A stretch of 22,977 nt of DNA from a virus: the IMG/VR virus record IMGVR_UViG_3300008113_005418, positions 1 to 22,977 of that record, one strand, 5' to 3'. Below, in pieces: positions 1 through 20,891 of this stretch (the stretch's first letter is position 1; each line of letters opens with the position of its first letter). The notes beneath the pieces are model-generated. The model saw only the letters and a program-made list of their open reading frames with translations. It ran no database searches and was not told the DNA's origin. The position numbers and the translations under genes were made by a program.

Positions 1-2189
1 GATAACAGTTCATCCAGGGGCAGGGGTGGGCTCACAAACTCCAGGCCACCGTCGCCGCTGTTGTCAGGATCTAAACTCGAATCGGGTTCTACAACATAGG
101 TACCGGGCTCGCGGCGTCCACCGTGATAACTGCTGCTGGCATTAACTGGACGGCCAATTGCTCGTGAAAAGTCATCGGCTACACTGTTGACGTCCATTTC
201 CCCATCGCCGCCCACAGTTTGCCAATAGGGCCATTCCATGTTGTAGGCGTTTTGGATGTCAGTCATGTGACGATAATCTTGATCTCGCAACCATGCTGAT
301 TCTTCAAAACCATCGGCATAATCGTCGTTGAATTCTTCCTGTGCGTCACTGTAGCCATTGTCTTGATTGTCCCAGGCATCGGCTGCAAATTCATCAGCTA
401 TGTCGTCCAGGCGGTCAGTCACAGCGTCCTGAAACGCTTCAGACTCTTGGTCAATGCCTGCTAGATCTGCAAATTTTTCTCGCACATACTCTCGGGCTTG
501 ATCCATGTATTCGTCACGGTCAAACAAGTTGTTGCGGTCAATATAGTCACGCAGATAATCTTTTCCGTCTTGACTCCATTTTTCGTCCAACTGCTCCATC
601 TTCCAGGTTTCGTAATCTTCGTACATGATTTCGACCATTTGCCGAATGCTTCTGGAGGAGTTGTAGTCGCCGTCGTCAAAGAAACGTTCAGCATCCGCAA
701 TGCTGTCCACACGCTCATCGTAGTCGTAGTCGGGTTCTTGCTCACTATCTTGATCTACATCAATACCAGGCACAATCATTTCAAACTCAATACCGGCACG
801 GGCATCAATGTCCCGCACCAGTTTTTTAAGATTGCTGGGACTCATGTCAATTTCAAACAGGTCTTGCTCCAACAATTCAAACTCTTGCTGCAGACTTTCA
901 GACACATTGTATGTGGGATCTGTTTTGATCCGGCGCATGCCTGCGGGCTGCTTGGGATCAGCAGGATCAACATCAATAACATCCAGTCCAGTTTTTTCTA
1001 AATCTTGAATGAATTTGTGTTCGGTTTCTTCGTCACCAAAACTTATGATGCTGTCAGGCGGTCCGGCACCAAAGTCGTGCTTTCCGAGGCCTTTGAGGTT
1101 GGGAATGTGCTGACCCAGTTTGTACCAGTCGTACACATCGCTGACCCCAACACGTACTGTGCCAGCAGGCATGGTGGGCGGAGTCTCAGGACCTGGTGGA
1201 GTATCAGCACTGTAGTCTTCAGCAGTTTTGAAACGAGCCAGGTCTAGCTTGAGACTTTCTACCAGTCCGTTGGCCTTGGCCACTTGAGGGCGACCTTGAG
1301 CATCAGTTTTGAGTGCCAGTCGGTTGGCGTTCTTGCCTGTGGCACCCGGGCGCACATCGGGGCTGAGTGCCATCTTGAATCTGGGATCATTCCGTTCTTT
1401 CTCAGTTGGAATGTAGCCTGAACTTTCAGCCACAGCGTCGGCACCAAACAGTTCAGGATGACTACGACCATACCCACGCATGAGTTCACCAGCACGAGCA
1501 TTGGCTTCGTTTTCGTACGCACTGCCAGTTTCGCCTGCGTCAGGTGGCAGATCTTGTTGTTCTTGTTGATGATAATGCACCAGTTCATGTGCCACAGTGC
1601 GCAAAATATCCATCACATGACGATCTGCTGTGCTGATGTCCAGACGGTTGGTAGCAGGATCAAACTGTCCAAAGCTGCGAGTGCGTTGACTCCAGGCAGG
1701 GTCTCTACGCAGTTGCAGTCGAGGTGCTTGAGAAATGCCCAGTTGGTCAACGCAGTAGCCCACAAAATCCTGTATTACATCAGCCACGGAGCCTGCATCT
1801 TGTTCTAAAAACATCTTGGTGCTGGCGCTGACACCATCAGGGGTGCTGGCTTCACGAACACTTTCGCCACCCCCTCCGCCATCTCCGCCACCTTCGCCAC
1901 CTAGTTCAGTGCCGCCAAAGTTGAAGCCTGGAGTCCAGTAACCGCCGTAGCCATAACGCACACGGCTTTTTTTCTTCTTGGCAGGGCGCGACTTTTTCTT
2001 TTGGCGCTCAATTACTTCTTGTTGCCAAGACTCAATGATCTGTCTAGCCCCTGCAGTATCGCCCATTTTTAGTGTGACTTCTAGGTCAATTTTATGATGG
2101 TCGTCAGCCTGTTGCCAAAACTCAACAAGTTGTTGTTTCCAAGCAGGTTCGGGTACTGCAACCGGTGGCGAGAGATCTTGTATTTTCAT
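1..2189 (-). CDS. Large metallopeptidase-like protein with C-terminal amidoligase-like motifs (partial, runs off left edge)
   Basis: An open frame of 729 codons starts at ATG 2189 (N-terminus MKIQDLSPP) and has no stop before the window edge. Residues 80-95 are Lys/Arg-rich and about 108-122 form a Gly/Glu linker. Residues 201-205 are HELVH, the HExxH zinc-peptidase signature, followed by ENEANA at 226-231, which could supply the third zinc ligand. Around 466-471 is GIEFEM, and far downstream are PDSSL (702-706) and GLEFVSPPL (715-723). These resemble the ExE and D-S-L...E-[IV]-S-P-x-L motifs of the amidoligase (COOH-NH2 ligase, glutamine-synthetase-like) superfamily, here separated by an acidic insertion of about 230 residues. 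The peptidase call is from motif and context; the amidoligase call is inference from memory of the family. No clear Shine-Dalgarno precedes the start. The protein may be a virion or head-associated enzyme. Confidence 0.8.
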   Translation of the reverse strand, partial: MKIQDLSPPVAVPEPAWKQQLVEFWQQADDHHKIDLEVTLKMGDTAGARQIIESWQQEVIERQKKKSRPAKKKKSRVRYGYGGYWTPGFNFGGTELGGEGGGDGGGGGESVREASTPDGVSASTKMFLEQDAGSVADVIQDFVGYCVDQLGISQAPRLQLRRDPAWSQRTRSFGQFDPATNRLDISTADRHVMDILRTVAHELVHYHQQEQQDLPPDAGETGSAYENEANARAGELMRGYGRSHPELFGADAVAESSGYIPTEKERNDPRFKMALSPDVRPGATGKNANRLALKTDAQGRPQVAKANGLVESLKLDLARFKTAEDYSADTPPGPETPPTMPAGTVRVGVSDVYDWYKLGQHIPNLKGLGKHDFGAGPPDSIISFGDEETEHKFIQDLEKTGLDVIDVDPADPKQPAGMRRIKTDPTYNVSESLQQEFELLEQDLFEIDMSPSNLKKLVRDIDARAGIEFEMIVPGIDVDQDSEQEPDYDYDERVDSIADAERFFDDGDYNSSRSIRQMVEIMYEDYETWKMEQLDEKWSQDGKDYLRDYIDRNNLFDRDEYMDQAREYVREKFADLAGIDQESEAFQDAVTDRLDDIADEFAADAWDNQDNGYSDAQEEFNDDYADGFEESAWLRDQDYRHMTDIQNAYNMEWPYWQTVGGDGEMDVNSVADDFSRAIGRPVNASSSYHGGRREPGTYVVEPDSSLDPDNSGDGGLEFVSPPLPLDELL

Positions 2190-2195
2190 AAATTG

Positions 2196-2203
2196 TATTT
2201 ATT
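2196..2203 (-). promoter_or_regulatory. AATAAATA octamer abutting the start at 2189 (late-promoter-like)
   Basis: The minus strand reads AATAAATA, 7 of 8 matches to the T4 late consensus TATAAATA. It ends only 6 bases before the ATG, so if it is a promoter the transcript would be almost leaderless. It may be a chance match in an AT-rich gap. Confidence 0.3.
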
Positions 2204-2230
2204 GTGATCCGCACAAGCGGTACAGATAGC

Positions 2231-2262
2231 AAAAAGCCCCTTTCGGGGCTTTTATTTTTTTT
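2231..2262. terminator. Bidirectional rho-independent terminator
   Basis: A perfect hairpin AAAAGCCCC-TTTC-GGGGCTTTT is flanked by A-rich and T-rich runs (TTTTATTTTTTTT on plus, GGGGCTTTTT on minus), so it can act in both directions. It follows the GNAT-like gene that ends at 2299 on minus and separates it from the large peptidase gene. Confidence 0.85.
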
Positions 2263-2298
2263 ATGTATGTAAATGTGGAGTTCTTTTTACTGATCTAA

Positions 2299-2730
2299 TC
2301 ACTTATAGATGTAATTCACAGTGGTAGAATTTTCACGCAGTTCTCTAGCGCCGTTCTTCAAATGGAATCGTCGAGCCATTTCGGTCTTGGGACTCAGAGT
2401 CACGTAAGTACTGATGTCGGGAAATTCAGCTTGTATGCTGGTTTGTGCTTCTTGTATTAGATCACGCCCGGCTCCTGCCGCATAACTCCAAATAGTGTAA
2501 AATACCGCAGTTGTAGCACTCTCAACCAGACCAAACAAATCTTCTACAGCAGCAGGCACCTCAGTCAAAAACTTTACACAGGTCACTGCCAAAGTTCGAT
2601 CACCTTCTTTGAGCATGTAAATTCTTGAATTAGCATTGACTCGTTGGCTCACGGGAATTTCAGGACGAACTGGGTCATCCTGAATCAAGGTCTCAATGTC
2701 GTCGGTGATACTGGTTATGGTGTATAACAT
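2299..2730 (-). CDS. GNAT-like acetyltransferase fold protein, conserved in T4-like phages
   Basis: The product has 143 residues. The C-terminal half has a layout typical of a GNAT acetyltransferase: a central strand (AVFYTIWSY, about 94-102), a glycine-containing turn into a helix (AGAGRDLI, about 104-111), a strand (STYVTLSP) and the helix-turn MARRFHLKNGA near 120-130, which resembles the FY-x-x-x-GF acetyl-CoA-binding end of the fold. I recall similar proteins in marine T4-like phages, but the substrate is unknown. The gene is a single unit with a late-type octamer about 30 bases upstream and a strong terminator downstream. No good Shine-Dalgarno is visible. Confidence 0.72.
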   Translation of the reverse strand: MLYTITSITDDIETLIQDDPVRPEIPVSQRVNANSRIYMLKEGDRTLAVTCVKFLTEVPAAVEDLFGLVESATTAVFYTIWSYAAGAGRDLIQEAQTSIQAEFPDISTYVTLSPKTEMARRFHLKNGARELRENSTTVNYIYK

Positions 2731-2758
2731 GATTTACGCTGTGTCCGTTATGTACAGC

Positions 2759-2766
2759 TATTTATC
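2759..2766 (-). promoter_or_regulatory. Late-promoter-like GATAAATA upstream of the GNAT-like gene
   Basis: The minus strand reads GATAAATA, 7 of 8 to T4 late TATAAATA. It would place the transcription start about 23 bases before the ATG at 2730, with no other gene in between. Confidence 0.55.
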
Positions 2767-2782
2767 AAATATACGTATAAAA

Positions 2783-2812
2783 CAAAAATTGGAGACTAAG
2801 ACTCCAATTTTC
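2783..2812 (-). terminator. Rho-independent terminator after the glycosyltransferase gene
   Basis: On minus, AAAATTGGAG - 7-base loop - CTCCAATTTTT is followed by GTTTT. It lies about 30 bases after the stop codon at 2840. The stem also has a T-tail on plus, so it could be weakly bidirectional. Confidence 0.7.
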
Positions 2813-2839
2813 ATGTGACTATTAGTTCTCGGCAGTGTG

Positions 2840-3745
2840 TTATTCAGGTGCCTTGCTGTAGTTTTCAGCAATGACTTCAGGTGCAGCTTCTGCAGTCAAC
2901 ACCGCAGGGTCCACGTTGTGCATGGGCTGTGCAGGAGTTATGGAGTGTGTGGGACCGGCCTTGGCCAACACCATGGCATGCAGATCTTGATACAGCTTGT
3001 CCTGTGTGGCAGCGTCAAATGTGTAGGTACCTGTGTGACGCAGCAGCACACGCTTGTCCACCCAGACCTGTCCACCAAGATCGCGCCAGTTTTCACAGAA
3101 GGTCCAGTCTTCCGAGTAGTAGCGACCTTCGCGCACAGCAGTGTCAAAGTAGGTTTTCATGTACTGGTTCAAGCTGGCATCCAGTCCAATGTCGTTGGCA
3201 AATGGTCGGGTGGCAGGATGTGCATCCAGTTTTTCAAACACATCACGCTTGATCAACAGGAAGCCTGTGCCGGTCTTGCTGACTTCGATCAAGTTGGAGT
3301 TGGGGTCTTCGGTCACACCTGGAATACCGTTTACACACCATTTGATGGGCATGCTTTTCATGGGATACAGGCCGCCTATGACATCTTTTTGTGCGTCCAT
3401 CATGACCAACAGGTGCCAGGGTTCCCAGCCAATGTCAGCGTCGATAAACATCAGGTGAGTGGATTCTTTGGTGGCCAAGAACTTGGCTGTGAGGGTGTTA
3501 CGGGCACGACTGATCAAGCTTTCGTTGGTCATGGTTTCCACCGTCCATTCAATACCCAGCTGTCGAGCCATGTTGGCCCACTTGATGTAGCTCATGAATG
3601 TGCTTTCGGTCAATTGCCCGCCGTAGCAGGGCATGCACATGTGAACCCTGGTGGTTCTCAAATAGTCAAGATTGACCTGGATGTTTTGCTGATTGGTCAC
3701 AGCAGGATCTGTTGGGGGTGTGGTAGTGGGTTGGGCGTCAGCCAT
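2840..3745 (-). CDS. GT-A type glycosyltransferase-like protein
   Basis: The product has 301 residues and starts at ATG 3745, behind a good GGAG Shine-Dalgarno (ACGGAGAACCCA). After a Pro/Thr-rich N-terminus, a Rossmann-like start (VHMCMPCYGG, 34-43) leads to a helix with SRARN (79-83) and then to FIDADIGW (100-107), where DAD is the likely metal-binding DxD motif. Further on are a TGTGFLLIKR strand and a SEDWTFC segment near 210, like the ED-x-x-[FL]C catalytic region of GT-A enzymes. It probably glycosylates phage DNA, virion or host surface; the acceptor is unknown. A long open frame on the opposite strand (2837-3787) is a shadow. The gene stands alone between a promoter region and a terminator. 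Confidence 0.78.
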   Translation of the reverse strand: MADAQPTTTPPTDPAVTNQQNIQVNLDYLRTTRVHMCMPCYGGQLTESTFMSYIKWANMARQLGIEWTVETMTNESLISRARNTLTAKFLATKESTHLMFIDADIGWEPWHLLVMMDAQKDVIGGLYPMKSMPIKWCVNGIPGVTEDPNSNLIEVSKTGTGFLLIKRDVFEKLDAHPATRPFANDIGLDASLNQYMKTYFDTAVREGRYYSEDWTFCENWRDLGGQVWVDKRVLLRHTGTYTFDAATQDKLYQDLHAMVLAKAGPTHSITPAQPMHNVDPAVLTAEAAPEVIAENYSKAPE

Positions 3746-3767
3746 TGGGTTCTCCGTAAAAGTAAGT

Positions 3768-3775
3768 TATTTACA
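3768..3775 (-). promoter_or_regulatory. Late-promoter-like TGTAAATA upstream of the glycosyltransferase gene
   Basis: The minus strand reads TGTAAATA, 7 of 8 to TATAAATA. The expected start of transcription would give a leader of about 17 bases containing the GGAG ribosome site. It overlaps the downstream side of a possible sigma70 promoter at 3777-3805. Confidence 0.45.
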
Positions 3776-3776
3776 G

Positions 3777-3805
3777 AGTATACATGACCCGGACAAAATT
3801 TACAA
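3777..3805 (-). promoter_or_regulatory. Possible sigma70 promoter TTGTAA-17-TATACT
   Basis: The minus strand has TTGTAA (3805..3800), a 17-base spacer and TATACT (3782..3777). The -35 box has 4 of 6 matches and overlaps the stop codon of the upstream gene. It is a weaker call than the promoters at 9084, 9914 and 17568. Confidence 0.35.
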
Positions 3806-5188
3806 CCTGCGCTCGCTCAAATAGTCTTCGTCTATGGGTTGATTGTCCCGGCGTTGGTAACTGGCTGTCATGCCTGCTCCCGCACCAGAGGTATTGGCTG
3901 TAGTGCCTGTGGCTGACACAGTTTCTAGTGTTGCTGCCCAGCCTTGATTTTCTTCTACATCTGCTGATTCAAATTGATCAAAATCCTTGGCTCGACGCTG
4001 CTCACTGCCCTGGGCAGGAAATTGTGGTTTTGTTTGGGCGGTCTGTGCTGTTGACTTTTGAATTTTTTGAGCAGCAGCGTCTTGTGCCTTAGACATCAAA
4101 AAGTTTTTGGTACGAGCATCCAAGGTCCTACCATCTTCTACTGCACGTTGAACCAGCACTTTGTAATATTTGTTGGTGAGTTCGACTTGTTGTGCGTTGA
4201 TATCGGGCATGCTTTGAGCACCAGAGCCCATGGCAGCCAGCGCCATGGCACCACCTGCCACAACATCTTTCCAGCCCTCAGCTACAGAAGTCCGATCGGT
4301 TGCAATAGTTTTGATCTGCTTGGCAATTGCAAGTGCTTGCTCTCCCTGGCGCTGGGTCATGGCCTGTTTGAACTCAGCAATCAGTTTGGTCAGGGCATGG
4401 CGCTCAGCATCGCTGATGTTGCCCACACGATAGCCTTCTAGGGCCCGCATGATTCGATCAGCATTGTACATTTTCACAATGTCTCGCGCTTTTAAGTAAG
4501 CACCTGTGGCCAAGCCTGCGCCCATAGCAGCCAACACACTCAGTATTTCGCCGTAAAATTGAGCATCTGACATGAATTCCACGCTTTCCGCCACATCCGA
4601 TGCACCACCAATGGCAGCGTCTAGGAGTTTGACCACTGTGGCCGCAAGCTTGGCATTGCCCTGTGTGCGTGGATACAGGCTCATGACCAAGGCAGTTTTT
4701 CTGCGTTGGTCTAGTGTAGGCCAGGCCGTGCGTATTTGTGTGGCCGATGTCATGCCCGGACCAAACTCCACTGTGGGCAAGTAGGCCATGTAGGCATGTT
4801 TTGAAAAAGGTTCTAGCTTTTTGGCACCCAACAAGGGCTGCAAGTAACTGGGGGAGCCATCACGTTTGACGCCCCCTGCTTGTGGTGGCTTTGTAGCGTC
4901 TTTTTCTGATCGCACAAAAATCAGTACATCTCGGTTGGGGTCAAATCGAGCAGTAATTTCCTCAGCACGGAAAGGGCTTTTGACCTGCACAAAATGTCCT
5001 GGTTCCACACCAGCTAGTTTGGCCAGTTTTTCTTTTACTGGGAAAGGGAATGGTCTTGCACTGGTGTCGTTGGTTGCTGCCACATACACTTCGGCGTCAG
5101 GAAATGCTCGCTGTGCACTTTGATACAGAGCCAGATGCCCTGCGTGAAATGGATGAAAACCTCCCGGCATGATTACTACTGTGGCCAT
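3800..5188 (-). CDS. Nucleotidylyltransferase domain fused to a long alpha-helical, Ala/Gln-rich phage region
   Basis: The product has 462 residues. The N-terminus MATVVIMPGG-FHPFHAGH (HxGH motif at residues 15-18) and TSATQIR (147-153) are the two hallmark motifs of the HIGH nucleotidylyltransferase superfamily (cytidylyl-, NMN- or phosphopantetheine-adenylyltransferase-like), so residues 1 to about 190 form the enzyme domain. The rest (about 195-462) is unlike any enzyme I recognise: helical, rich in Ala, Gln and Lys, with two VAE[SG] tetrapeptides (199-202, 302-305) and a Thr/Gly-rich tail. It may be a virion-associated segment. The substrate is unknown. The start ATG 5188 follows CTGTT with no Shine-Dalgarno, and a GCTAAATA octamer lies 5 bases upstream. 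A second, small nucleotidylyltransferase occurs at 14482. Confidence 0.8.
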   Translation of the reverse strand: MATVVIMPGGFHPFHAGHLALYQSAQRAFPDAEVYVAATNDTSARPFPFPVKEKLAKLAGVEPGHFVQVKSPFRAEEITARFDPNRDVLIFVRSEKDATKPPQAGGVKRDGSPSYLQPLLGAKKLEPFSKHAYMAYLPTVEFGPGMTSATQIRTAWPTLDQRRKTALVMSLYPRTQGNAKLAATVVKLLDAAIGGASDVAESVEFMSDAQFYGEILSVLAAMGAGLATGAYLKARDIVKMYNADRIMRALEGYRVGNISDAERHALTKLIAEFKQAMTQRQGEQALAIAKQIKTIATDRTSVAEGWKDVVAGGAMALAAMGSGAQSMPDINAQQVELTNKYYKVLVQRAVEDGRTLDARTKNFLMSKAQDAAAQKIQKSTAQTAQTKPQFPAQGSEQRRAKDFDQFESADVEENQGWAATLETVSATGTTANTSGAGAGMTASYQRRDNQPIDEDYLSERRL

Positions 5189-5193
5189 AACAG

Positions 5194-5201
5194 TATTTAG
5201 C
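5194..5201 (-). promoter_or_regulatory. GCTAAATA octamer between two genes
   Basis: The minus strand reads GCTAAATA in the 15-base gap between the stop at 5204 and the ATG at 5188. The same octamer occurs at 6169-6176 and 20913-20920. It matches TATAAATA at 6 of 8, but it is very close to the start codon. Confidence 0.35.
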
Positions 5202-5203
5202 CG

Positions 5204-5635
5204 TTACATGTTTTCTAAAAGCCAGATGTAGACGGGGGTGGAGAATTTAAGACTTAGTGTGCCGTTACAGCCCATGCTGCCGTAGAATCGATCCTGAACT
5301 GCAGGAGCAGATCCGTTGAAATCGTGGTGATACACAGCCTGTTCCTGCACCACTTGATTGACATCAATGTCTTCGAACTCAAAACGACCGACCATGATCA
5401 CAGCGTCTTGTTCGATGTTGCCTTCAGCGTCAATCTTGGTATGTGCAGGCAGTTTGTTTTTTAGAACCACACGCAGTTCATGTTCGCTGTCATCATCTTC
5501 TACATCGAACTGCACAGTTTCTGTAGCACTTAAATGATCTGAGTTGAAGATCTGTTGTCGATCAATCCAGACTTCTACGCCCAAAGGGCAAGCAGGGTCT
5601 GAAGGCAAGATATCAAATGCGACAGAGGCGGTCAT
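5204..5635 (-). CDS. Conserved T4-like phage hypothetical protein, probably a beta-rich virion protein
   Basis: The product has 143 residues, is acidic and is predicted to be mostly beta strand. Conserved-looking elements are VEVWIDRQQI (20-29), a DVEDDDSEHEL block, HTKIDAEGNI, the YHHDFNG motif and the C-terminus YIWLLENM. I recall this pattern from cyanophage and pelagiphage hypotheticals but know no function. Its ATG overlaps the stop of the preceding gene as TGATG, so it is translationally coupled in the 5204-6161 group. A neck, tail or decoration role is only a guess from the neighbours. Confidence 0.7.
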   Translation of the reverse strand: MTASVAFDILPSDPACPLGVEVWIDRQQIFNSDHLSATETVQFDVEDDDSEHELRVVLKNKLPAHTKIDAEGNIEQDAVIMVGRFEFEDIDVNQVVQEQAVYHHDFNGSAPAVQDRFYGSMGCNGTLSLKFSTPVYIWLLENM

Positions 5636-5994
5636 CAGTAGGTCACAGTCACAGTGTTGATCACACCGGCTTCAAAACGTTCTACTCGAGCTCGCAACCA
5701 GGTAAAATTACCCACAACAGATTCTGAAATGTTCTGTGTGGTCACTGTGCTGGCATCGCCATACTCTAGAGTGGGGAACCAAGCAGCGGAGTCTGGATCC
5801 ATGTCCAAGGTGGCTTCAATGGTGATAGTACCTTGAAACCCTGTGACTGAGAATCCCATGGTCTGCACGCCACCACGTCCGCGATAGTAGTCAGCAGCTT
5901 TGACAGCATCACTAAACCAGTCTTGACTTGACCCGTCGTAGTTGCCCGAGGGTGTGCCGTGAGTTACTGCAGTCAGCAAGGCCTGAGTGGTCAT
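5635..5994 (-). CDS. Conserved phage virion-type hypothetical protein
   Basis: The product has 119 residues and is beta-rich. It has a SGNYDGSSQDWFS segment near 17-29, YYRGRGGVQT (36-45) and repeated strand-like stretches such as FQGTITIEATLD, ending NTVTVTY. The composition (Thr, Val, Gly, aromatic residues) and the alternating pattern suggest a jelly-roll-like structural or carbohydrate-binding protein. I recall close relatives in T4-like marine phages as unnamed structural genes. The start ATG overlaps the stop of the 56-residue gene (ATGA), and the stop overlaps the next start (TGATG). Confidence 0.7.
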   Translation of the reverse strand: MTTQALLTAVTHGTPSGNYDGSSQDWFSDAVKAADYYRGRGGVQTMGFSVTGFQGTITIEATLDMDPDSAAWFPTLEYGDASTVTTQNISESVVGNFTWLRARVERFEAGVINTVTVTY

Positions 5995-6161
5995 TGTGCG
6001 CTCACAACCTCTACCACAACTGTGTCGCCCACTAATTCTTGAGCCACTTGTTCCAGTGCTTGTTGAATGTCGGCGCTAGCAATGCCGGCTGCGTCTGACT
6101 CGCTGTCTCGGACGATTTTTGAAAATTTAATGACGATAACGTCTTCGATGATTTTTGCCAT
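5991..6161 (-). CDS. Small conserved-type hypothetical protein, 56 aa
   Basis: A short frame from ATG 6161 encodes a 56-residue protein starting MAKIIEDVIVIKFSKIV, with a Ser/Asp-rich middle and an amphipathic IQQALEQVAQELV helix. The frame is supported by tight packing: the upstream stop TAA (6168-6170) is 6 bases before its ATG and its own stop overlaps the next start as ATGA. No domain is recognised. It probably belongs with the two virion-type genes that follow. Confidence 0.65.
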   Translation of the reverse strand: MAKIIEDVIVIKFSKIVRDSESDAAGIASADIQQALEQVAQELVGDTVVVEVVSAQ

Positions 6162-6167
6162 AGTGTA

Positions 6168-6800
6168 TTATTTAGCCTGTATGGGCAGGGTCTGGCGAAT
6201 TGCCCCGGGCATGACCATTTCGATCATGGTCACATCCAAAGGGCTGTTGTGTTCAATATAACTGTGTCGAGCGAACGGATAGCGGTGACGCCCTAATCCC
6301 AGTCTCATGCGAGTGGTGTAATCTAGGTTAAAATAGTCCCCGCGGCTGATCACAAACTGCAAAAATTGCTGGCCCTGTTCGGGATCCATTCGCTTTTCCC
6401 TAAAGTAGCTGCGATACTGATACTTGGGATTGCGGCGCAACAACACCCCTGCGGGCTGTGTGACCAAGGCCTTGCGATAACTGCCCACAGTTGCATGTGG
6501 AATCTTTTGAATTCTCTCATAATCGTCAGCATTGTTGGTGTAAACAAACATGTTGTTCCAACTGGAGGTCAACTTGATCTTGGGACCTAGATCGATTAGA
6601 CCCTGGGTCACTTCCAACACACTCACCAGTTCGACCTCAGGTGTGTGCCAAGAGTGCTGCATCATGTTGTTGTACTGACTGGTCACTCGCTCAGGGGTCA
6701 GCGCACCAATGTATCGAGCGCCCAGGTAGTGCATCTCCACAGCATAGCAATACTGATTGTGATACAGCCGACTACGATGTTCATGGTGTGGTTGTGGCAT
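6168..6800 (-). CDS. Hypothetical phage protein rich in Tyr, His and Arg
   Basis: I place the start at ATG 6800 (MPQPHHEHRSR), one base after the stop of clpA (TAACATG) and behind GGAGCC. A longer frame from 6833 would add 11 residues overlapping clpA. The 210-residue product has no motif I recognise. Notable parts are the aromatic segment LYHNQYCYAVEMHYLGARYIG near the N-terminus, a WNNMFVYTNNADDYERI stretch, and a basic RMRLGLGRHRYPFARHSY stretch near 170-187. It is probably co-transcribed with clpA. The stop codon TAA is embedded in a GCTAAATA octamer. Function unknown. Confidence 0.7.
   Translation of the reverse strand: MPQPHHEHRSRLYHNQYCYAVEMHYLGARYIGALTPERVTSQYNNMMQHSWHTPEVELVSVLEVTQGLIDLGPKIKLTSSWNNMFVYTNNADDYERIQKIPHATVGSYRKALVTQPAGVLLRRNPKYQYRSYFREKRMDPEQGQQFLQFVISRGDYFNLDYTTRMRLGLGRHRYPFARHSYIEHNSPLDVTMIEMVMPGAIRQTLPIQAK
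6169..6176 (-). promoter_or_regulatory. GCTAAATA octamer overlapping a stop codon
   Basis: The minus strand GCTAAATA includes the last codons of the upstream gene (GCT AAA TAA). It ends 7 bases before the ATG at 6161. The identical octamer is at 5194-5201 and 20913-20920. The coding overlap makes chance likely here. Confidence 0.3.
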
Positions 6801-6801
6801 G

Positions 6802-9060
6802 TTAGGCTCCGGGGAAACGAATGATTCCGTCATCGTCTACTACCGGAATCTCGTGTGCAACCACGTCAAACACCACATCTTCTCCGGACATGTCAGCTGC
6901 AATGTCGCAGTTGCTGAGTCGATCAAACAAGATCCGCTTGCTAAGTGGCACACGGATCAACTGATCGATCTTGCGGCTCAGAGGTCGTGCACCCATCTTG
7001 GCATCATAGCCCTTGTCAGCCAGCATGTCTACCACAGCTTCGGTCAGGGTCAAGCGGATGTTTTTGTTGGCCAGACTTGTCTGCAGTTCTTGTGTGAACT
7101 TCAGCACCACTTTCTTGATGGCCAGGGTATCCAGGCGGGAGAATTTCACAATCTGATCGATACGGTTACGCATTTCAGGTTTGAAGAACTCCCGGAGTGC
7201 TCGTTCGTCTTCGCCGGTCTTTTCCTGTGATCCAAAGCCAATCATGTTGCCTTCGGCGGCAGCAGCACCCAGGTTAGATGTCAGGATAATGATGGAGTTC
7301 TTGACGTTGACCTTTTTGCCATTGCTGGAGGTCAACACACCTTCGTCCAGCATCTGCAGCAGGATGTTGGATACATCAGGGTGTGCTTTTTCAATCTCGT
7401 CAAACAGGATGATGCTAAACGGGTTCTTGCTGATATCCGAGATCAGTTTGCCGCCACCCACACTGCCGTCCTCAAAGCCCACATAGCCCGGAGGTGCACC
7501 AATCAAACTTGATACACTGTGGCGTTCCTGGAACTCACTCATGTCATATTTCAGCAAGGGCATGTCCAGGTTGGCACTCAGTAGTCGAGCCAGTTCGGTC
7601 TTGCCTGTGCCTGTTGGGCCCAAGAACAAGAAACTGGCCATGGGTCGCTTTTCGTTGCTGATGCCAGCAAAGCTGATGTACACACGATCCAGCACAGCAT
7701 CCACAGCAGCATCTTGACCGTACAGCTTTTGCTTGATGTTTGATTCCAGTTCCACAATCTTGGCCGATCGCTCGTTCTGCAGTTTGTCTGTTGGCACACC
7801 AGTCATGCGAGCCACCTGCTGTTCGATCATGTCACGGGTGATAGTGACTGTGCCCGCATCTTTCACACGCTCCCTAGCACAAGCAGCGTCAATGATGTCG
7901 ATACTTTTGTCAGGATTTTTGCGGTCATGAATGTAACGATTGGCCAGTTCCACTGCAGTGGTCATAGCTTCGGTGTCAATTAACACATTGTGAAACTGCT
8001 CCAGGCGTGGGCTGAGTCCAATCAGGATCTGTTCTGTGGTAGCAGTATCAGGTTCGTCAATGGCCAGGCGATAAAAACGACGCATGAGTGCACGGTCCTT
8101 TTCAAAGCTTTCGTAGAACTCTTCCCAGGTGGTTGACGCCACAATCTTGAGACTGCCCCGGGTGATCGCCGGCTTCAGCATGTTGGCAAAATCCAGTCCT
8201 GCACTGGAGCCTGCTCCTGCACCTTTCATAGTGTGTGCTTCGTCCACAAACAAGATACAGTTCTTTTTGGCTTCTAAGGCTGCAATCACAGCCTTGAACT
8301 TTTCTTCGAACTCGCCACGATATTTAGATCCTGCTAGGAGTGAACCAATTTCCAAGCTCCAGACTTCATGTCCTTTTAGAAACTCAGGCACACGCCCTGC
8401 AATGATTTCCTGGGCTAGGCCGTCCACAATGTGTGTCTTGCCCACACCTGGATCGCCTACCATTAGCACGTTGGCCTTGAAGCGTCGAGCCAACACAGTG
8501 ATCATTTCTTCCAGTTCTTTACCACGGCCAATCATGGGCTCCAGCTGATTCTTTTCGGCACGAGCAGTGAGGCTGGTGCAGTACTCGGTCAGCACTTCGT
8601 CGGCCTGCTGAGTGCTCATTTTGACATCTGAAGGTTTGTAGTTCTTTTGCCAGAACTCCACAAATTCTGCTTTCTTCATGCCATATTTCAGCATGTAGTA
8701 TTGTGCATGACTGTTGCCTTCGCTCATGATTGACAGATACAGATCAATCACGCTGAGTGCCCTACGACCAGTAAACATCACCTGCACGTTGGCACGGTTG
8801 AAAATTCTCTCCAGAGCCTGGGTCTTTTTGGGTGTGTCCACATTGCTTTTGACCAGGCTCACCAGGCTTGTGATGTAAGCATCTAGTTCCAGGTCCATCT
8901 GATCCACTGCTACGCCAAAAGCGTCGGCTGTTTTGCGAAATGGAGCAAACCGGATTATGCTCAACAACAGGTGTTCTGTGGTCACATATTCGTGTTGTTT
9001 TTGCTGTGCAATTTTCACAGCCTGATCCACAATGTGTTCAATTTCGGGAGTGGGGGTCAT
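6802..9060 (-). CDS. clpA: ClpA-like AAA+ unfoldase with intact ClpP-binding-type loop
   Basis: The product has 752 residues, full length for ClpA (about 758 in E. coli). Order: an N-domain with the Clp repeat start EYVTTEHLLLSI (24-35); AAA-1 with Walker A GDPGVGKT (202-209), Walker B ILFVDEAH (269-276) and arginine finger region RALMRRF (323-329); AAA-2 with Walker A GPTGTGKT (481-488), Walker B ILFDEIEKAH (551-560) and sensor 2 GARPLSRK (690-697). The ClpB/Hsp104 coiled-coil middle domain is absent. MIGFGSQ (606-612) aligns with the IGL loop by which E. coli ClpA docks on ClpP, and the following FFKPEMRNRID matches the same spot in ClpA. This points to a phage adaptor-type unfoldase that could use host ClpP. 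ATG 9060 has AAAGGA upstream and a sigma70 promoter at 9084-9112. The bacterial ClpS/ClpA pair is not seen here. Confidence 0.93.
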   Translation of the reverse strand: MTPTPEIEHIVDQAVKIAQQKQHEYVTTEHLLLSIIRFAPFRKTADAFGVAVDQMDLELDAYITSLVSLVKSNVDTPKKTQALERIFNRANVQVMFTGRRALSVIDLYLSIMSEGNSHAQYYMLKYGMKKAEFVEFWQKNYKPSDVKMSTQQADEVLTEYCTSLTARAEKNQLEPMIGRGKELEEMITVLARRFKANVLMVGDPGVGKTHIVDGLAQEIIAGRVPEFLKGHEVWSLEIGSLLAGSKYRGEFEEKFKAVIAALEAKKNCILFVDEAHTMKGAGAGSSAGLDFANMLKPAITRGSLKIVASTTWEEFYESFEKDRALMRRFYRLAIDEPDTATTEQILIGLSPRLEQFHNVLIDTEAMTTAVELANRYIHDRKNPDKSIDIIDAACARERVKDAGTVTITRDMIEQQVARMTGVPTDKLQNERSAKIVELESNIKQKLYGQDAAVDAVLDRVYISFAGISNEKRPMASFLFLGPTGTGKTELARLLSANLDMPLLKYDMSEFQERHSVSSLIGAPPGYVGFEDGSVGGGKLISDISKNPFSIILFDEIEKAHPDVSNILLQMLDEGVLTSSNGKKVNVKNSIIILTSNLGAAAAEGNMIGFGSQEKTGEDERALREFFKPEMRNRIDQIVKFSRLDTLAIKKVVLKFTQELQTSLANKNIRLTLTEAVVDMLADKGYDAKMGARPLSRKIDQLIRVPLSKRILFDRLSNCDIAADMSGEDVVFDVVAHEIPVVDDDGIIRFPGA

Positions 9061-9083
9061 TGATTTCCTTTAGGGGTTTGTTT

Positions 9084-9112
9084 ATTATATTACTTACGTA
9101 GCTGATTTGCAA
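9084..9112 (-). promoter_or_regulatory. Sigma70 promoter TTGCAA-17-TATAAT for clpA
   Basis: The minus strand has TTGCAA (9112..9107, 4 of 6), exactly 17 bases, then a perfect TATAAT (9089..9084). It lies in the 66-base gap between dnaJ and clpA and would give a leader of about 17-18 bases containing AAAGGA. It suggests clpA can be read by unmodified host polymerase. Confidence 0.7.
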
Positions 9113-9126
9113 ACAATCTGACAATA

Positions 9127-9906
9127 TTATGATCGGTGTTGTTGTATTGCTGTGACTATTTCGGGTGCGATGATTTTGGGAATTTGAGCCTGCATGCGAA
9201 TCATTAGGTCACCTTTTTGCCCATGTCGATCTTGTATGCCATGTCCACGCAGGCGCATCACTGTGCCGGGTTGGGTACCAGCCGGCACCCGAACCACTAG
9301 ATTGTGACCCAGTATGTTGGTGACTTCTACTTCGGCACCCAAAATCATGTCCCAGATGCTGATCCTGTGTTCGGTATGTAGATTTAGACCTTCTCGACGC
9401 CACTGTGCCATGGGCTGTATTCGAAACTGCACCACCAGGTCCATGCCCCCAGGTGCAACTCCACCGTACTGCACCTGGTCTCCGTCGTCAATGCCTCGAG
9501 GCACCTCAATGGCCACTGTGCTGGAGCCAGCAGAGGTGCTGACATTCACAGCCCGGCTTCCGCCCTGTGCTACATCTTGTAGGCTTACCCAGATGGTCAT
9601 TCTCACATGATTGCGTCGAGACTGTTGCGGTTGTCCAAATTGTTGCCCGAACATCTGCCCAAACATGTCGTGCATGTTGAATCCACCGCCACCGGGAAAT
9701 CCCGAAAACTGTGGACGGGGATTGTCGTATTCAGCTCGTCGTGCGTCGTCGCCCAGCACACCATATGCTTCTTGTATTTCCTGAAACTTGACAGTGTCGC
9801 CGCCTTTGTCCGGATGAAATTTTGATGCAAGCTTTCTATACGCCTGCTTTATTTCGTCAGGCAAAGCCGACTTGTCTACACCTAGTATTTGATAATAGTT
9901 TTTCAC
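9127..9906 (-). CDS. dnaJ: DnaJ/CbpA-like J-domain co-chaperone without zinc finger
   Basis: The product has 259 residues. The J domain fills residues 2-62: [16 protein letters not shown], the essential HPD (31-33), and [14 protein letters not shown] Gly/Phe-rich linker (68-93) follows, then two C-terminal beta-sandwich substrate-binding domains (about 100-259; [30 protein letters not shown]). The four CxxCxGxG zinc motifs of class A DnaJ are absent, so this is class B, CbpA-like. It should stimulate host DnaK. The only start that keeps the J domain is GTG 9906, with no Shine-Dalgarno. A near-consensus sigma70 promoter (9914-9942) would start transcription almost at this codon. It precedes clpA, forming a chaperone/unfoldase pair. 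Confidence 0.92.
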
Positions 9907-9913
9907 GTGTTGT

Positions 9914-9942
9914 ATTGTACAACAAACGGATCACAATGTCAA
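9914..9942 (-). promoter_or_regulatory. Strong sigma70 promoter TTGACA-17-TACAAT for dnaJ
   Basis: The minus strand carries a perfect -35 TTGACA (9942..9937), a 17-base spacer and TACAAT (9919..9914, 5 of 6). It starts immediately after the holin stop codon at 9944. The predicted transcription start is within about 1-3 bases of the GTG at 9906. Confidence 0.75.
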
Positions 9943-9943
9943 C

Positions 9944-10204
9944 TCAATCTGGTTGCACGGTGCGAGCCATTTTTTCTCGACTGCGTTGCCAGGCAGTGAC
10001 ACCCACCACAGCGCCCATGGCCATGTGATACAGGCCTGCACCCTGCAAGGTAAGTGGACTCCACTGAGTAATGGTCTGCCCCAGCGAGGCTTGCAGGAGA
10101 TTCCAGGCCACTGGAAACACAATAAAGTCTGTGACACAGGTGATCATATAGGTCCAACCCATGGCTGGACGCCACTTGTTGTTGAACCAGGTTTCGTTGT
10201 TCAT
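9944..10204 (-). CDS. Holin-like membrane protein
   Basis: The product has 86 residues. The short polar N-terminus NNETWFNNKWRP leads into a hydrophobic segment (about 15-34, ending FIVFPVAW), then a polar stretch with TQWSPLTLQGAG and a second hydrophobic segment (about 58-74, MAMGAVVGVTAW), ending in a charged tail REKM. This layout and the P-L-T/GAG-LYH region resemble phage holins of the 3TM type (PF11351, from memory). It sits at the end of the endolysin-spanin cluster, one base after the upstream stop (TAACATG), which supports a lysis-timing role. It would sit in the host inner membrane. Confidence 0.75.
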   Translation of the reverse strand: MNNETWFNNKWRPAMGWTYMITCVTDFIVFPVAWNLLQASLGQTITQWSPLTLQGAGLYHMAMGAVVGVTAWQRSREKMARTVQPD

Positions 10205-12208: not shown

Positions 12209-13429
12209 ATGAACGTATTGATACTAACTCCTGACGCAGTAGGCAGCACATTGCTACAAAGAATGCTAACAATTTACATGCAGTTGCATGAGTTTGATCG
12301 CCCAGTGATTAATTTACACGAGTTGACCAATGGACTTGCACGTTACTACAGCCCCGAATTTAACCAGGAGTTGGTTGGCAAAAAAGAAGTAAAAAACTGG
12401 GGATATTATCAAACCCTTGAAGAAATTGCCCAGTTACTCAGCAGCGTGGATCATTACAAAACGTCGAGACTGGCACATTATCATATTCGTCAACGCGGAG
12501 ACACAGTTGAACAACAGATTCCTTTTTATCAGTATCTTAATGAAAATTTTTATGTAGTTGCTTGCAGGCGTGCCAATGTGTTTGAACATGCTCTTAGTAT
12601 GACACTTAACAAAATTACCAAAAAACTAAACGTCTATGACGCTTACGAAAAAATTGACACTTTTTATGAAATATACCGTTCAGGAGTAAATTTAGATTCT
12701 ACAGTGTTTGTTGGTCAACTAAATGCCTATCGCCAATATATAGAATGGAGCGAGCAACATTTTAATATCAGTTCTTATTTTAACTACGAAAAAGATGTTC
12801 CTAGATTAGAAGAATTCATTTTAGATCTTCCGGTGTTTAGCAGTCAGCCCAATAGAATCACCTGGGAGAAAAATTTTGGATTATCATTTAACGACTGGAA
12901 TAGATTGCATTATGCCCGCAGTAATTTAAACAGTTTGTCACTGGAATCACGACAAGAATTTGGTAATTTGGCTCTAGAGCATGCTAAGGTAGTGTCTGAA
13001 TATCAACAACTTGCTCCTGAGCACTGGCCTCCCGTAAATTCATCTGACGATTTTAACAAACTTCCAACTGCAATAAAAAATCAATGGGCACAGAATTTTA
13101 TCAGTCAGCAAGGTATAATTCCTTTACTAGACAGCAAGACACAACAAAATTTAATGCAGTACAATAATGGATATGTGTCTGCGCAAAAAACTATAAATCA
13201 AATGGTGGATCTAGGTATTATAATCAACGGCCCACCAATTAAAAAACAAACCCTGGCAGAGAAAAGAAAAATAATAAAAAATTACCAAGAATTACTTGCA
13301 GTGTACAATGCCTGGGCGGAGAAAAATTCAAATATTGCTAGTGTATTAGACGAAAAAAATTTGTTAGATCAAGGTCAACAAGAAAAACAATTCTGGAACA
13401 AATCATTAACCTCGTTGATCAGCCGTTGA
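12209..13429 (+). CDS. Sulfotransferase-like protein (P-loop, PAPS-type), AT-rich
   Basis: The product has 406 residues. The N-terminus NVLILTPDAVGSTLLQRML has a strand then a P-loop-like turn (7-16) and helix, like the 5'-PSB loop of sulfotransferases. ACRRANVFEHALSM (118-131) fits the 3'-phosphate-binding motif (R...S). The C-terminal half is helical and charged, without recognised domain. It would transfer sulfate from PAPS, if the fold holds; the acceptor is unknown. It is on plus, against its neighbours, and visibly more AT-rich than the lysis genes. Its 3' end overlaps the convergent SGNH gene by 11 bases. No Shine-Dalgarno precedes the ATG. Confidence 0.7.
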   Translation: MNVLILTPDAVGSTLLQRMLTIYMQLHEFDRPVINLHELTNGLARYYSPEFNQELVGKKEVKNWGYYQTLEEIAQLLSSVDHYKTSRLAHYHIRQRGDTVEQQIPFYQYLNENFYVVACRRANVFEHALSMTLNKITKKLNVYDAYEKIDTFYEIYRSGVNLDSTVFVGQLNAYRQYIEWSEQHFNISSYFNYEKDVPRLEEFILDLPVFSSQPNRITWEKNFGLSFNDWNRLHYARSNLNSLSLESRQEFGNLALEHAKVVSEYQQLAPEHWPPVNSSDDFNKLPTAIKNQWAQNFISQQGIIPLLDSKTQQNLMQYNNGYVSAQKTINQMVDLGIIINGPPIKKQTLAEKRKIIKNYQELLAVYNAWAEKNSNIASVLDEKNLLDQGQQEKQFWNKSLTSLISR

Positions 13430-14285
13430 AATTTTCAAGTATCTTCTGAACAAAAAAATTACTAGTGACAAGGTCAAAATGATGGTAATCTCTAGCATAG
13501 TCTAGATTTGACAACTGAAGTAATTGATTCTGTCTATAAAAATTATTTGATAAAAACCAAATATCAAAATTTACCTGTGTAAACACACTTCTAGATTCTT
13601 TTTTTACATGATCAGGCAACTGATTGAATTCAGTCAGTGTAGACGGAAAAGAGTCAGGCCAAGAAACATCTTTAATGTTGTTCCAACTTCTTGTTACGTG
13701 CTCAAAAATCTCGTTCACATCAGAATTTGGTATTATTCCATTGAATATGGTAGTGCCTGCATTGGATTTTTTTAAACTGATATAACAATTAATAAAATTT
13801 GTTATATTGTCAGATTCTGAATCGTATTTGTCAGATCTCACTCTTCTGTCTTCGTCGGGTAAGTTAGTGTCAGGCAACTCTCTACGATGACCATAAGACC
13901 ATAACACTACCATTTGTTTAGGCGCAACTTCTTTAATAATTTGCTGAGATCGACGACTAATCCAGTTATTACTGGCACCGTCCATGCTGACATTGATGCA
14001 TCGACGACCAGTTGCAGCAGACAGCACCTGCGGCCATGTAAAATTGTACGGGCTACCAACGCCCACAGTAAAACTGTCACCCACACACCATATGGAGTTT
14101 TTCAACTCACTTAAAGATTGAGGCCATTCCGCGTCTCTAAATCCTCGACTGTTATAGTTGTATTCAACATGATGCGGATATGATCGAAAGTGATCTTTGT
14201 TCAAACATTCTTGTAAACAATCTATACCTGAAAATTTCCATTTTTTATTTTTTCTTGATTGCAGAATCAAATCACCTAATATCAT
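13419..14285 (-). CDS. SGNH/GDSL-type hydrolase-like protein
   Basis: I choose ATG 14285, which overlaps the stop of the DUF2061 gene as ATGA; a TTG at 14300 would add five residues. The product has 288 residues. CVGDSFTVGVG (67-77) contains the GDS nucleophile block, DGASNN carries the block III G-x-x-N oxyanion residues, and RDYHHF (265-270) gives the C-terminal D-x-x-H. So the Ser/Asp/His set of an esterase or lipase-like SGNH enzyme looks complete. It is the last gene of the coupled 13.4-17.6 kb cassette and, like the opposing sulfotransferase gene, is AT-rich. It could remove acyl groups from a surface glycan. Confidence 0.75.
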   Translation of the reverse strand: MILGDLILQSRKNKKWKFSGIDCLQECLNKDHFRSYPHHVEYNYNSRGFRDAEWPQSLSELKNSIWCVGDSFTVGVGSPYNFTWPQVLSAATGRRCINVSMDGASNNWISRRSQQIIKEVAPKQMVVLWSYGHRRELPDTNLPDEDRRVRSDKYDSESDNITNFINCYISLKKSNAGTTIFNGIIPNSDVNEIFEHVTRSWNNIKDVSWPDSFPSTLTEFNQLPDHVKKESRSVFTQVNFDIWFLSNNFYRQNQLLQLSNLDYARDYHHFDLVTSNFFVQKILENFNG

Positions 14286-19062: not shown

Positions 19063-19350
19063 TTATTTTCCGGCAGCGCGGAGGTTGGCACCTTTATTGA
19101 AACTGGGGCTGTAGGGACTCGTGCCCTGGATGTTGCCTTTGCGAGCACTCCACTCGTAGCCAGCACGGTGACCTGAACAGTCTTTGGTGCACTCAGACCC
19201 CAAAAAAGACAACTCATCCAGTTGTTCATCTTCGTTTTTGTTGCGTCCGGCACAGTGAGCACGTTGACTAAACCCTCGTGGCCTGGCACAATTGATAGAG
19301 CTTTTGTATTTGGTGCTCCACTTTTCGGCCACAAACTCTTGTGCTCTCAT
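19063..19350 (-). CDS. Cys-rich small hypothetical protein conserved in T4-like phages
   Basis: The product has 95 residues, starting MRAQEFVAEKWSTKYKSSINCARPRGFSQRAHCAGR. It has four Cys (about 21, 33, 54, 58) and His and is basic, possibly a small metal-binding or DNA-associated protein. The start ATG at 19350 overlaps the stop of the preceding 35-residue gene (TAATG). I recall related sequences in marine phages without known function. It is one of four adjacent products sharing an M-x-x-x-E-[FI] N-terminus. A 33-base AT-rich gap separates it from the SGNH-like gene. Confidence 0.72.
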   Translation of the reverse strand: MRAQEFVAEKWSTKYKSSINCARPRGFSQRAHCAGRNKNEDEQLDELSFLGSECTKDCSGHRAGYEWSARKGNIQGTSPYSPSFNKGANLRAAGK

Positions 19351-19807: not shown

Positions 19808-20010
19808 GACTTGTTGCCCCAGTTGGCAGCACCTTTTTTGCGACATTGTACCAGGGCACCTGACGCATAGGCACTAGGCCAAACTTTGTATCTGCTGCGA
19901 ACTTTGTTGTAGCAGGCATCTTTCTTTTCTGCCAACACCAGGTCTGCAAAAGCAGGACCGCCACACCGGGGGCAGGTCATTGGGGGTTGGTCAAATTCGT
20001 TTAGTCTCAT
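19804..20010 (-). CDS. Small conserved phage protein with CxxC zinc-like start
   Basis: The product has 68 residues: MRLNEFDQPPMTCPRCGGPAF, then a DACYNKVRSRYKVWPSAYAS block (32-51) and GALVQCRKKGAANWGNKS at the end. CPRCGG is a zinc-knuckle-like pair (C13, C16). The KVRSRYKVWPSAYASGALVQC stretch is a block I recall as recurring in marine T4-like phages. It overlaps both neighbours as ATGA. Function unknown; an internal capsid or DNA-bound protein is one possibility. Confidence 0.75.
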   Translation of the reverse strand: MRLNEFDQPPMTCPRCGGPAFADLVLAEKKDACYNKVRSRYKVWPSAYASGALVQCRKKGAANWGNKS

Positions 20011-20891
20011 TTTTTAGGTTGCACCGCTGTGGGCATGTTTCGATACACACGCTTTTGTGGATCCCACACTGTTTTTAGTGGACCTGCACCGGCCAACTGT
20101 TTGAGTCTGGCCATGGCCGAATCAAATCGATCAGCAGGCATGTTGCCAACTTTTTCTTGTTCTGCCACACCTTGCTCGTTCATGCTTTGTGCGCTGGCAT
20201 AGAACTTGGCGTGGGGTGCAATCATGTCGCCTATCCTGCGCTCTAATCGTGCTGGATTACGGCGAACCGAGTCGGGAATTTCGTTTGCAAAATACTCGTA
20301 TAGTTCTTCGAACATGGGTTTTGTTGGATCAATGTATCCGGTATTTACAAAGTGTCTAACTTCATCAATGTGCCGCATCAATATGTCTTTGAGATAAGGA
20401 TTTGGTGCAGGAGCAGGTGTTGCGCCACTTAGCTTTTTTGTTGTCGAATCTTCGTTTGCGCTTTCGGCCAAGCCGGGAATAGGTGAGAGACCTTTTGGAA
20501 CTTGGCCGGTCCAGTATTGGCTTCCGGGTTCGGCTGGCAAATCTCGCTTGGCATTGGGCTCTGCTAAATCACACAACTTGGTGTGATGTAAGAATATGGT
20601 GCTGCCACAATCGTAACAAGGATAATCTTCAGTTGGATCATCGCTGTCATCCAGCGCAAATTCGTTCAGTTCGTCTTCACTATCAGCATAGTCATTAAGG
20701 CTGACATCACCGGCTTGAAAACTTTGTGGTCCATAGTTGTAGAGGTCAACCACAACAAATGCACCATCACGGCCAATTTCTCGCACGTCGCCAGTCCGGC
20801 CCTGATATTTAACCGCACCGGTGATGATCACAGGATCGCCCACACTAAACGGTGCAGCAGCGCGGCCTTCAGTAAATTCTTCAAACAACAT
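20007..20891 (-). CDS. KOW-like domain hypothetical protein with acidic middle
   Basis: The product has 294 residues starting MLFEEFTEGRAAAPFSVGDP. Residues 15-65 look like a small beta barrel (VGDPVIITGAVKYQGRTGDV, VVVDLYNYG, a KOW/SH3-like fold). An acidic linker with CYDCG (92-96) follows, then LAES (141-144), a helical central part (HIDEVRHFVNTG, ELYEYFANEIP, LERRIGDMIAPH) and VAEQ (242-245), with a basic end. It is the first gene of the 19063-20891 chain, behind a GGAG site and a GCTAAATA octamer. It may be a processed capsid-associated protein; this is inference. Confidence 0.7.
   Translation of the reverse strand: MLFEEFTEGRAAAPFSVGDPVIITGAVKYQGRTGDVREIGRDGAFVVVDLYNYGPQSFQAGDVSLNDYADSEDELNEFALDDSDDPTEDYPCYDCGSTIFLHHTKLCDLAEPNAKRDLPAEPGSQYWTGQVPKGLSPIPGLAESANEDSTTKKLSGATPAPAPNPYLKDILMRHIDEVRHFVNTGYIDPTKPMFEELYEYFANEIPDSVRRNPARLERRIGDMIAPHAKFYASAQSMNEQGVAEQEKVGNMPADRFDSAMARLKQLAGAGPLKTVWDPQKRVYRNMPTAVQPKK

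What the first reader, a model, noticed from the sequence alone, without database searches (positions are those of the whole stretch)
1..2189. HExxH peptidase fused to amidoligase-like motifs
One protein carries HELVH plus GIEFEM and PDSSL...GLEFVSPPL. Amidoligases join amines to carboxylates; joined to a peptidase the protein might cut and re-ligate peptide bonds or cross-links on the virion or host wall. The long gap between the two amidoligase motifs is unusual.
Basis: partly seen in the sequence, partly recalled or inferred. Interest (0 to 1): 0.7.

Follow-up and report, generated by a model that had tools for sequence, protein, structure and literature searches.

The report
Phage head polyprotein of separable enzymes
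A large virus of water bacteria appears to make one long chain of enzymes, among them a protein-cutting enzyme and a bond-forming enzyme, which its own head-building protease probably dices into separate parts carried in the virus head and possibly injected into the host cell.

Summary
One 729-aa frame (3-2189, minus strand, cut by the contig end) carries a zincin metallopeptidase and the first half of an amidoligase. The full gene cannot be obtained, because the window is the whole viral record. Full-length relatives complete it: 30 of 32 amidoligase members match Amidoligase_2, a relative's model aligns to glutamine synthetases throughout the top 50 rows, and the catalytic-type motifs are invariant. 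The 'long gap' is a confidently predicted helical insert shared by the family.

The better reading is a mosaic head polyprotein of T4-like, mostly jumbo, phages. [VIL]-x-E|[SAGN] motifs, the rule of the T4 gp21 prohead protease, sit at the module junctions (113 against 38 in shuffles) and are scarce inside the folded modules. Stand-alone amidoligases and most stand-alone peptidases begin like the T4 capsid-targeting sequence. Five long contigs with these genes encode a gp21-type protease. Packaging and cleavage are inferred from sequence; injection and substrates are unproven. No description of this arrangement was found in the papers held.

The parts
3..2189 (-). Mosaic polyprotein gene, 729 aa seen, 3' end missing (contig end)
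   Evidence: 248 related stretches in viral contigs
1851..2189 (-). aa 1-113: N-terminal stretch ending in VRE|ASTP. The Pol-beta-type nucleotidyltransferase that relatives carry here is absent
   Evidence: L014 (74% identical downstream) has aa 1-265 with no counterpart in the window; relatives' NTase
1425..1850 (-). aa 114-255: zincin-like HExxH metallopeptidase, bounded by VRE| and VAE|
   Evidence: HExxHxxQ ... GSxxExxA invariant in 42/42; pLDDT above 90 over the domain; zincin metallopeptidases fill most of the best fold matches
1257..1424 (-). aa 256-311: module A (SSGYIPT...DPRFKMAL), bounded by VAE| and LVE|; sits at the C-terminus of many other phage ORFs
897..1256 (-). aa 312-431: module B (VRVGVSDVYDWYKLGQHI...), 60-78% identical across phages, bounded by LVE| and VSE|
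   Evidence: low-confidence fold
852..896 (-). aa 432-446: spacer ending in LFE|IDMS; predicted start of the mature amidoligase
   Evidence: Glu before [IVL]xMSPS invariant in 32/32; separate amidoligases begin with a short leader ending at this position
3..851 (-). aa 447-729: first part of the Amidoligase_2 / glutamine-synthetase-fold domain, cut by the contig end before GLHxNxS and xIEFRSPGGD
120..758 (-). about aa 478-690: family-specific insert, mostly helical, between the first strand (GIEFEM) and EPDSSL...GLEFVSP
   Evidence: pLDDT about 96 over the long helices; Pfam alignment resumes after it
3800..5188 (-). Neighbour: cytidylyltransferase-like ORF with internal VAE|S, VAE|G and VEE|N motifs; possibly a second processed head polyprotein
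   Evidence: motif excess not significant for this ORF alone (p 0.11)
2840..3745 (-). Neighbour: weakly Anp1-like putative glycosyltransferase, conserved beside the polyprotein in 49 loci
19063..19350 (-). Small ORF starting MRAQEFVAE|K, like the T4 internal-protein capsid-targeting sequence
20007..20891 (-). ORF starting MLFEEFTE|G with ten [VILM]xE motifs (3.9 expected)

Best explanation
The gene encodes a mosaic head polyprotein of T4-like, mostly jumbo, phages. It strings together a zincin metallopeptidase, two small linker modules and a GS-fold amidoligase with a long helical insert (relatives add an N-terminal nucleotidyltransferase). Predicted course: the chain enters the prohead core; the phage's gp21-type prohead protease cuts it after short [VIL]-x-E motifs at the module junctions; the freed enzymes stay in the filled head and enter the host with the DNA, where the amidoligase uses ATP to couple an amine to a carboxylate of a host protein or metabolite and the peptidase cuts host protein. 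Shown here: domain identities, fold, conserved active-site motifs, motif placement, capsid-targeting-like leaders on stand-alone relatives, a prohead protease gene in the same long contigs. Inferred: actual packaging, cleavage, ejection and every substrate.
For: Amidoligase: Pfam Amidoligase_2 above its cut-off in 5 of 6 proteins scanned and matching in 30 of 32 members; model pLDDT 81; the 50 structures listed are all of the glutamine synthetase family, Z 10.4-11.5 over about 190 residues; motifs invariant. Peptidase: invariant HExxHxxQ and third Glu in 42 of 42; zincin fold. Processing: [VIL]xE[SAGN] 113 observed against 38 shuffled in 131 linkers of 40 proteins, but 0 against 12.5 inside the peptidase and 1 against 7 inside module B; with 11 representatives under 55% identity still 25 against 11.4, 0 of 500 shuffles as high, while shifted, Asp, Gln and [AST] controls show no excess. 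In the window four such motifs bound the peptidase, A and B, and no [VILM]xE lies inside any of the three. T4 gp21 cuts after L/I-x-E (PMC9026906). Five long contigs (166-342 kb) hold a gp21-type protease and a gp23-type capsid protein whose leader ends in a matching [LI]xE. Leaders: M[KR]...[VILF]xE in 76 of 551 ORFs against 11.8 shuffled, matching MKTYQEFIAE of T4 IPII and IPIII. Stand-alone amidoligases carry such leaders, from MRYREFELTE to MKLYELFNE, including MRWQDISSKKLTE in Atu_ph07; stand-alone peptidases begin MNYKQFLRE (phage B23) and MRFNEVILE. Atu_ph07's copy, gp196 by numbering, lies two genes from the portal inside CDS 170-215, a cluster rich in virion proteins by mass spectrometry (PMC6102473).
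Against: No experiment shows any of these proteins in a virion or cut; Table S5 of the Atu_ph07 paper could not be read. The motif is short, so single sites are weak: for the window protein alone the excess is 5 against 2.4 (p 0.08). The amidoligase also contains [VILM]xE motifs, mostly in its insert, which must be shielded if the enzyme is to survive. The window's own N-terminus (MKIQDLSPPVAVPE|P) is a poor capsid-targeting match, and the NTase-bearing relatives begin M[ND]IxELD instead. The cyanophage S-SRM01 peptidase has no clear leader as annotated. The window is too short to contain the protease gene. The contigs behind L001 and L036 (over 200 kb) showed no gp21 or gp23 match, perhaps because they are fragments. 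Related linkers are not independent, so z-scores overstate significance.
Confidence: 0.66

Rival explanations
1. Self-processing polyvalent protein: the zincin domain cuts its own chain, as Iyer and co-workers proposed for phage and plasmid polyvalent proteins, and the chain is delivered whole or half-processed.
For: Zincin plus Pol-beta NTase is a leading theme of polyvalent proteins, and autoproteolysis is proposed for P1 DdrB (PMC5512222). The peptidase motif is intact in every fused relative.
Against: Related chains with NTase, B and A but no peptidase keep the same [VIL]xE motif before module A. The motif fits gp21-type specificity, and that protease is present in long contigs. Stand-alone peptidases exist in phages with nothing fused to them.
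Confidence: 0.14
2. One reading: peptidase and amidoligase act together to cut and re-ligate peptide bonds or cross-links on the virion or host wall.
For: The two domains share one chain in about 25 of 32 distinct amidoligase ORFs seen in the first loci, and both look active.
Against: Each occurs without the other in named phages and long contigs; module order is shuffled, e.g. L063 and L068; cleavage-like motifs lie between them. No cell-wall-binding or tail domain was found in the scanned relatives.
Confidence: 0.06
3. Structural or core protein: the chain is a head-core or scaffold-like component whose enzyme domains help head assembly (for example cross-linking or trimming capsid proteins) and never act in the host.
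For: Conserved neighbourhood and capsid-targeting-like leaders; Atu_ph07 copy close to the portal gene.
Against: Presence of individual domains is patchy between related phages, unlike assembly essentials; the domain set resembles host-directed effector enzymes (PMC5512222).
Confidence: 0.11

Closest known systems
Polyvalent proteins of phages and conjugative elements (Iyer et al. 2017, PMC5512222)
   Same: Many-domain chains mixing zincin metallopeptidase, Pol-beta NTase and other effector enzymes, thought to be delivered with the DNA; mosaic domain order
   Different: Amidoligase is not mentioned in that paper; here the junctions carry gp21-type sites rather than relying on the zincin; T4-like head system
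T4 internal head proteins IPI-III and Alt
   Same: Short N-terminal capsid-targeting leader ending in [L/I]xE cut by the prohead protease; injected with DNA in T4
   Different: T4 proteins are single effectors with terminal propeptides; here one chain holds several enzymes with sites between them
Amidoligase_2 (PF12224), including phage amidoligases (PHROG 2443, Bacillus and Porphyromonas phages)
   Same: Same Pfam family, GS fold, same motif order
   Different: Helical insert of about 200 aa after the first strand, and fusion to peptidase/NTase modules; only 24-30% identity to isolated-phage members
Agrobacterium phage Atu_ph07 AUZ94978.1 (gp196 by numbering) and Salicola phage SCTP-2 gp124
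   Same: Relatives of the amidoligase domain in isolated jumbo phages, each with a [VIL]xE leader
   Different: Stand-alone genes, no peptidase found elsewhere in those genomes; annotated hypothetical
Synechococcus phage B23 gp332 and the S-SRM01 homologue
   Same: Same peptidase family with all invariant residues (37-39% identity)
   Different: Stand-alone protein of about 125 aa; no amidoligase found in those genomes

Membership tests
Amidoligase_2 (PF12224) | Score above Pfam's gathering cut-off | tested here: met
   Relatives: 5 of 6 scanned proteins above cut-off, 30 of 32 match at E 0.01. The truncated window fragment alone gives no hit
Amidoligase_2 (PF12224) | Glutamine-synthetase-like fold | tested here: met
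   Model of relative L001, top 50 rows all of the glutamine synthetase family, Z up to 11.5
Amidoligase_2 (PF12224) | Conserved catalytic-type residues (GxExE, LE, GLH, EFR) | tested here: met
   Invariant or nearly so in 30-32 sequences; the window contains the first two only
Amidoligase_2 (PF12224) | ATP-dependent amide-bond formation | not testable with these tools
   Needs biochemistry
Zincin-like metallopeptidases | HExxH on one helix and third-ligand Glu on the next | tested here: met
   Invariant in 42/42; helices at model 93-112 and 125-144
Zincin-like metallopeptidases | Zincin fold | tested here: met
   Selecase/abylysin, IrrE and Wss1-type matches, Z 8-9; the single top row (1oz9, Z 9.6) is a hypothetical protein
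Peptidase_M78 / DUF6782 / Tox-MPTase3 | Score above curated cut-off | tested here: not met
   Window domain below every cut-off; filed only as zincin
Polyvalent proteins | Several unrelated effector domains in one phage chain | tested here: met
   NTase, peptidase, A, B, amidoligase in varying order
Polyvalent proteins | Delivered into the host with the DNA | not testable with these tools
   No proteome available here
T4-type internal head proteins | N-terminal capsid-targeting leader ending in [L/I]xE | tested here: inconclusive
   Met by stand-alone relatives; the window protein starts MKIQDLSPPVAVPE|P, a poor match
T4-type internal head proteins | gp21-type cleavage motifs | tested here: met
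   (as motifs; cleavage itself not observed)
T4-type internal head proteins | gp21-type protease in the same genome | tested here: met
   Five long relatives' contigs; cannot be seen in the window itself, a 23-kb fragment
T4-type internal head proteins | Presence in the virion | not testable with these tools
   Needs virion mass spectrometry

The most novel reading that the evidence does not exclude
Uncultured T4-like jumbo phages package an enzyme cocktail as mosaic polyproteins that the prohead protease dices at a readable [VIL]xE code, and one of the pieces is an injected GS-fold ligase that conjugates host proteins; the same code then reveals many other injected effectors from sequence alone.
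Probability: 0.35. Interest if true: 0.85.

Novelty: new variant of a known kind. Interest (0 to 1): 0.6.

Why it matters
If right, it links two known ideas, T4 head-protein maturation and polyvalent effector proteins, into a processed effector polyprotein, and gives a simple rule for spotting head-packaged proteins in uncultured jumbo phages. It also adds a glutamine-synthetase-fold ligase to the enzymes a phage may inject, beside ADP-ribosyltransferases and acetyltransferases. The prediction is directly testable: Atu_ph07 is cultured, and its virion proteome has been published.

Tried and rejected
Extending the gene past the left edge: impossible, the window is the whole record. Pfam and PHROGs on the fragment: nothing above cut-off. 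PDB sequence profiles for both domains: no meaningful hit; only fold comparison worked. Genome-contig scan for cellular relatives of the amidoligase: none confirmed, so no bacterial donor was found with the patterns used. Modules A and B got low-confidence models, so no fold is claimed for them. Whole-protein enrichment of the motif in the window chain alone is not significant; the case rests on the family. The phiKZ/SPN3US-type [AST]xE motif was tested as the cleavage rule and shows no excess. Iyer et al. 2009 on amidoligases is not held.

Full report
Observation. The window holds one long minus-strand frame, 3-2189, of 729 aa with a start codon and no stop before the contig end. The window is the entire virus record, so the gene cannot be completed from its own source. 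The fragment gives no Pfam or PHROG hit above cut-off.

Relatives. A scan of viral contigs found 248 related stretches; 80 loci were kept. Full-length fused versions run to about 1,330-2,070 aa and match Amidoligase_2 above its cut-off, with a weak N-terminal nucleotidyltransferase hit. That NTase region has invariant GSNA and SDxDLH motifs in 43 sequences. The window protein has lost it: the first 265 aa of its close relative L014 have no counterpart in the window. A GNAT-like ORF (2299-2730, hit to the malonyl-CoA decarboxylase C-terminal model) sits at the place; that this is a GNAT fold is my inference from the family.

Amidoligase. In 32 aligned sequences the expected motifs GxEFE, EPDxSL, GLExxSP, TGLH and EFR are invariant or nearly so. 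A model of the L001 domain has mean pLDDT 81. The 50 structures listed by VIA-align are all of the glutamine synthetase family, Z 10.4 to 11.5, about 190 residues aligned across model residues 22-456. Foldseek alone gave weaker support for the same fold (best E 0.002). The unaligned stretch is the 'long gap': a set of long, confidently predicted helices between the first strand and EPDGSL. Pfam's alignment starts after it.

Peptidase. HExxHxxQ and GSxxExxA are invariant in 42 of 42, including stand-alone proteins of Synechococcus phages B23 and S-SRM01. The predicted domain has pLDDT above 90 and the order helix, strands, HExxH helix, Glu helix, as described for zincins in PMC5512222. Fold matches are mostly zincins (selecase, IrrE, Wss1, others). 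It falls below the cut-off of every Pfam peptidase family.

Mosaic structure. Modules NTase, peptidase, A, B and amidoligase occur in different orders and subsets. In at least seven loci the amidoligase is its own ORF. In the contig behind L041 it coexists unfused with the peptidase, in two copies; in the contig behind L052 it occurs as three tandem copies. Phages Atu_ph07 and SCTP-2 have the ligase and no detected peptidase; B23 has the peptidase and no detected ligase. This argues against a joint cut-and-ligate machine. A conserved neighbourhood (Clp ATPase, small ORFs, cytidylyltransferase, putative glycosyltransferase, polyprotein) recurs in 40-odd loci.

Junction motifs. Module A is almost always preceded by [VILM]xE then a small residue, though what lies upstream differs. 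Across 131 linkers from 40 proteins, [VIL]xE[SAGN] occurs 113 times against 38 in shuffles, and is depleted inside the folded modules. With 11 diverse proteins the excess remains (25 against 11.4), and control motifs show none. L014 and the window differ by an insertion exactly after VAE|. In the window the sites are 113, 255, 311, 431 and 446, bounding the modules. T4 gp21 cuts after L/I-x-E (PMC9026906).

Head context. Five long contigs carrying these genes (166-342 kb) encode a Peptidase_S77 prohead protease, and seven of nine tested encode a gp23-type capsid protein with a leader ending in [LI]xE. Many ORFs around the loci begin M[KR]...[VILF]xE (76 of 551, 11.8 expected), very like MKTYQEFIAE of T4 IPII and IPIII, read from the T4 record. 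The stand-alone amidoligases begin in this way, as do most stand-alone peptidases. The Atu_ph07 ligase gene lies two genes from the portal, inside a gene range that the authors report as rich in virion proteins. That places it by location only; its own detection was not checked.

Mechanism and status. I conclude that the chain is a head polyprotein cut by the prohead protease into separate enzymes, probably co-injected. Domain identities and motif placement are shown; packaging, cutting and injection are inferred; substrates are unknown. An amidoligase of this type most likely uses ATP to join an amine to a carboxylate, by family knowledge. Self-cutting by the zincin remains possible but is less likely, since peptidase-free chains keep the same sites.

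Novelty. Polyvalent proteins and T4 internal proteins are both known. The combination, with a GS-fold ligase and gp21-type sites between modules, was not found in the papers searched; the library lacks most subscription journals, so absence there is weak evidence. I rate it a new variant of a known kind.

Noticed in passing
window 16606-17574 (-): A TctC/Bug-type substrate-binding protein, of bacterial type, in a phage contig; suggests a Burkholderiales-like host (inference). One relative locus (L056) carries a homologue.
   Followed up: no
window 2299-2730 (-): GNAT-like ORF at the place where relatives have the NTase domain, with four [VIL]xE[SAGN] motifs against 0.6 expected.
   Followed up: partly
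L108 (contig of L052), 977-10001: Three tandem paralogous amidoligase ORFs of 825-1034 aa, with starts like capsid-targeting leaders (MKLYELFNE, MKLYELFE, MKLYEFLIQQLDE).
   Followed up: partly
loci around the polyprotein, e.g. L018, L019, L045, L048: Runs of neighbouring ORFs starting MRAxEFxxE or MKLFELFE; probably a large set of head-packaged proteins in these phages.
   Followed up: partly
L001 aa 1060-1376 and similar C-termini: Beyond the amidoligase, relatives carry repeated domains of about 50-60 aa (GNWGIWxxxxxRFxRxP..., GPWEVFRxSD...), of unknown function.
   Followed up: no
window 12209-14300: AT-rich patch (36-44% G+C against about 50%) with a weak GDSL-like hydrolase (13419-14300) and an ORF of unknown function on the plus strand; looks like a recent insertion.
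   Followed up: no
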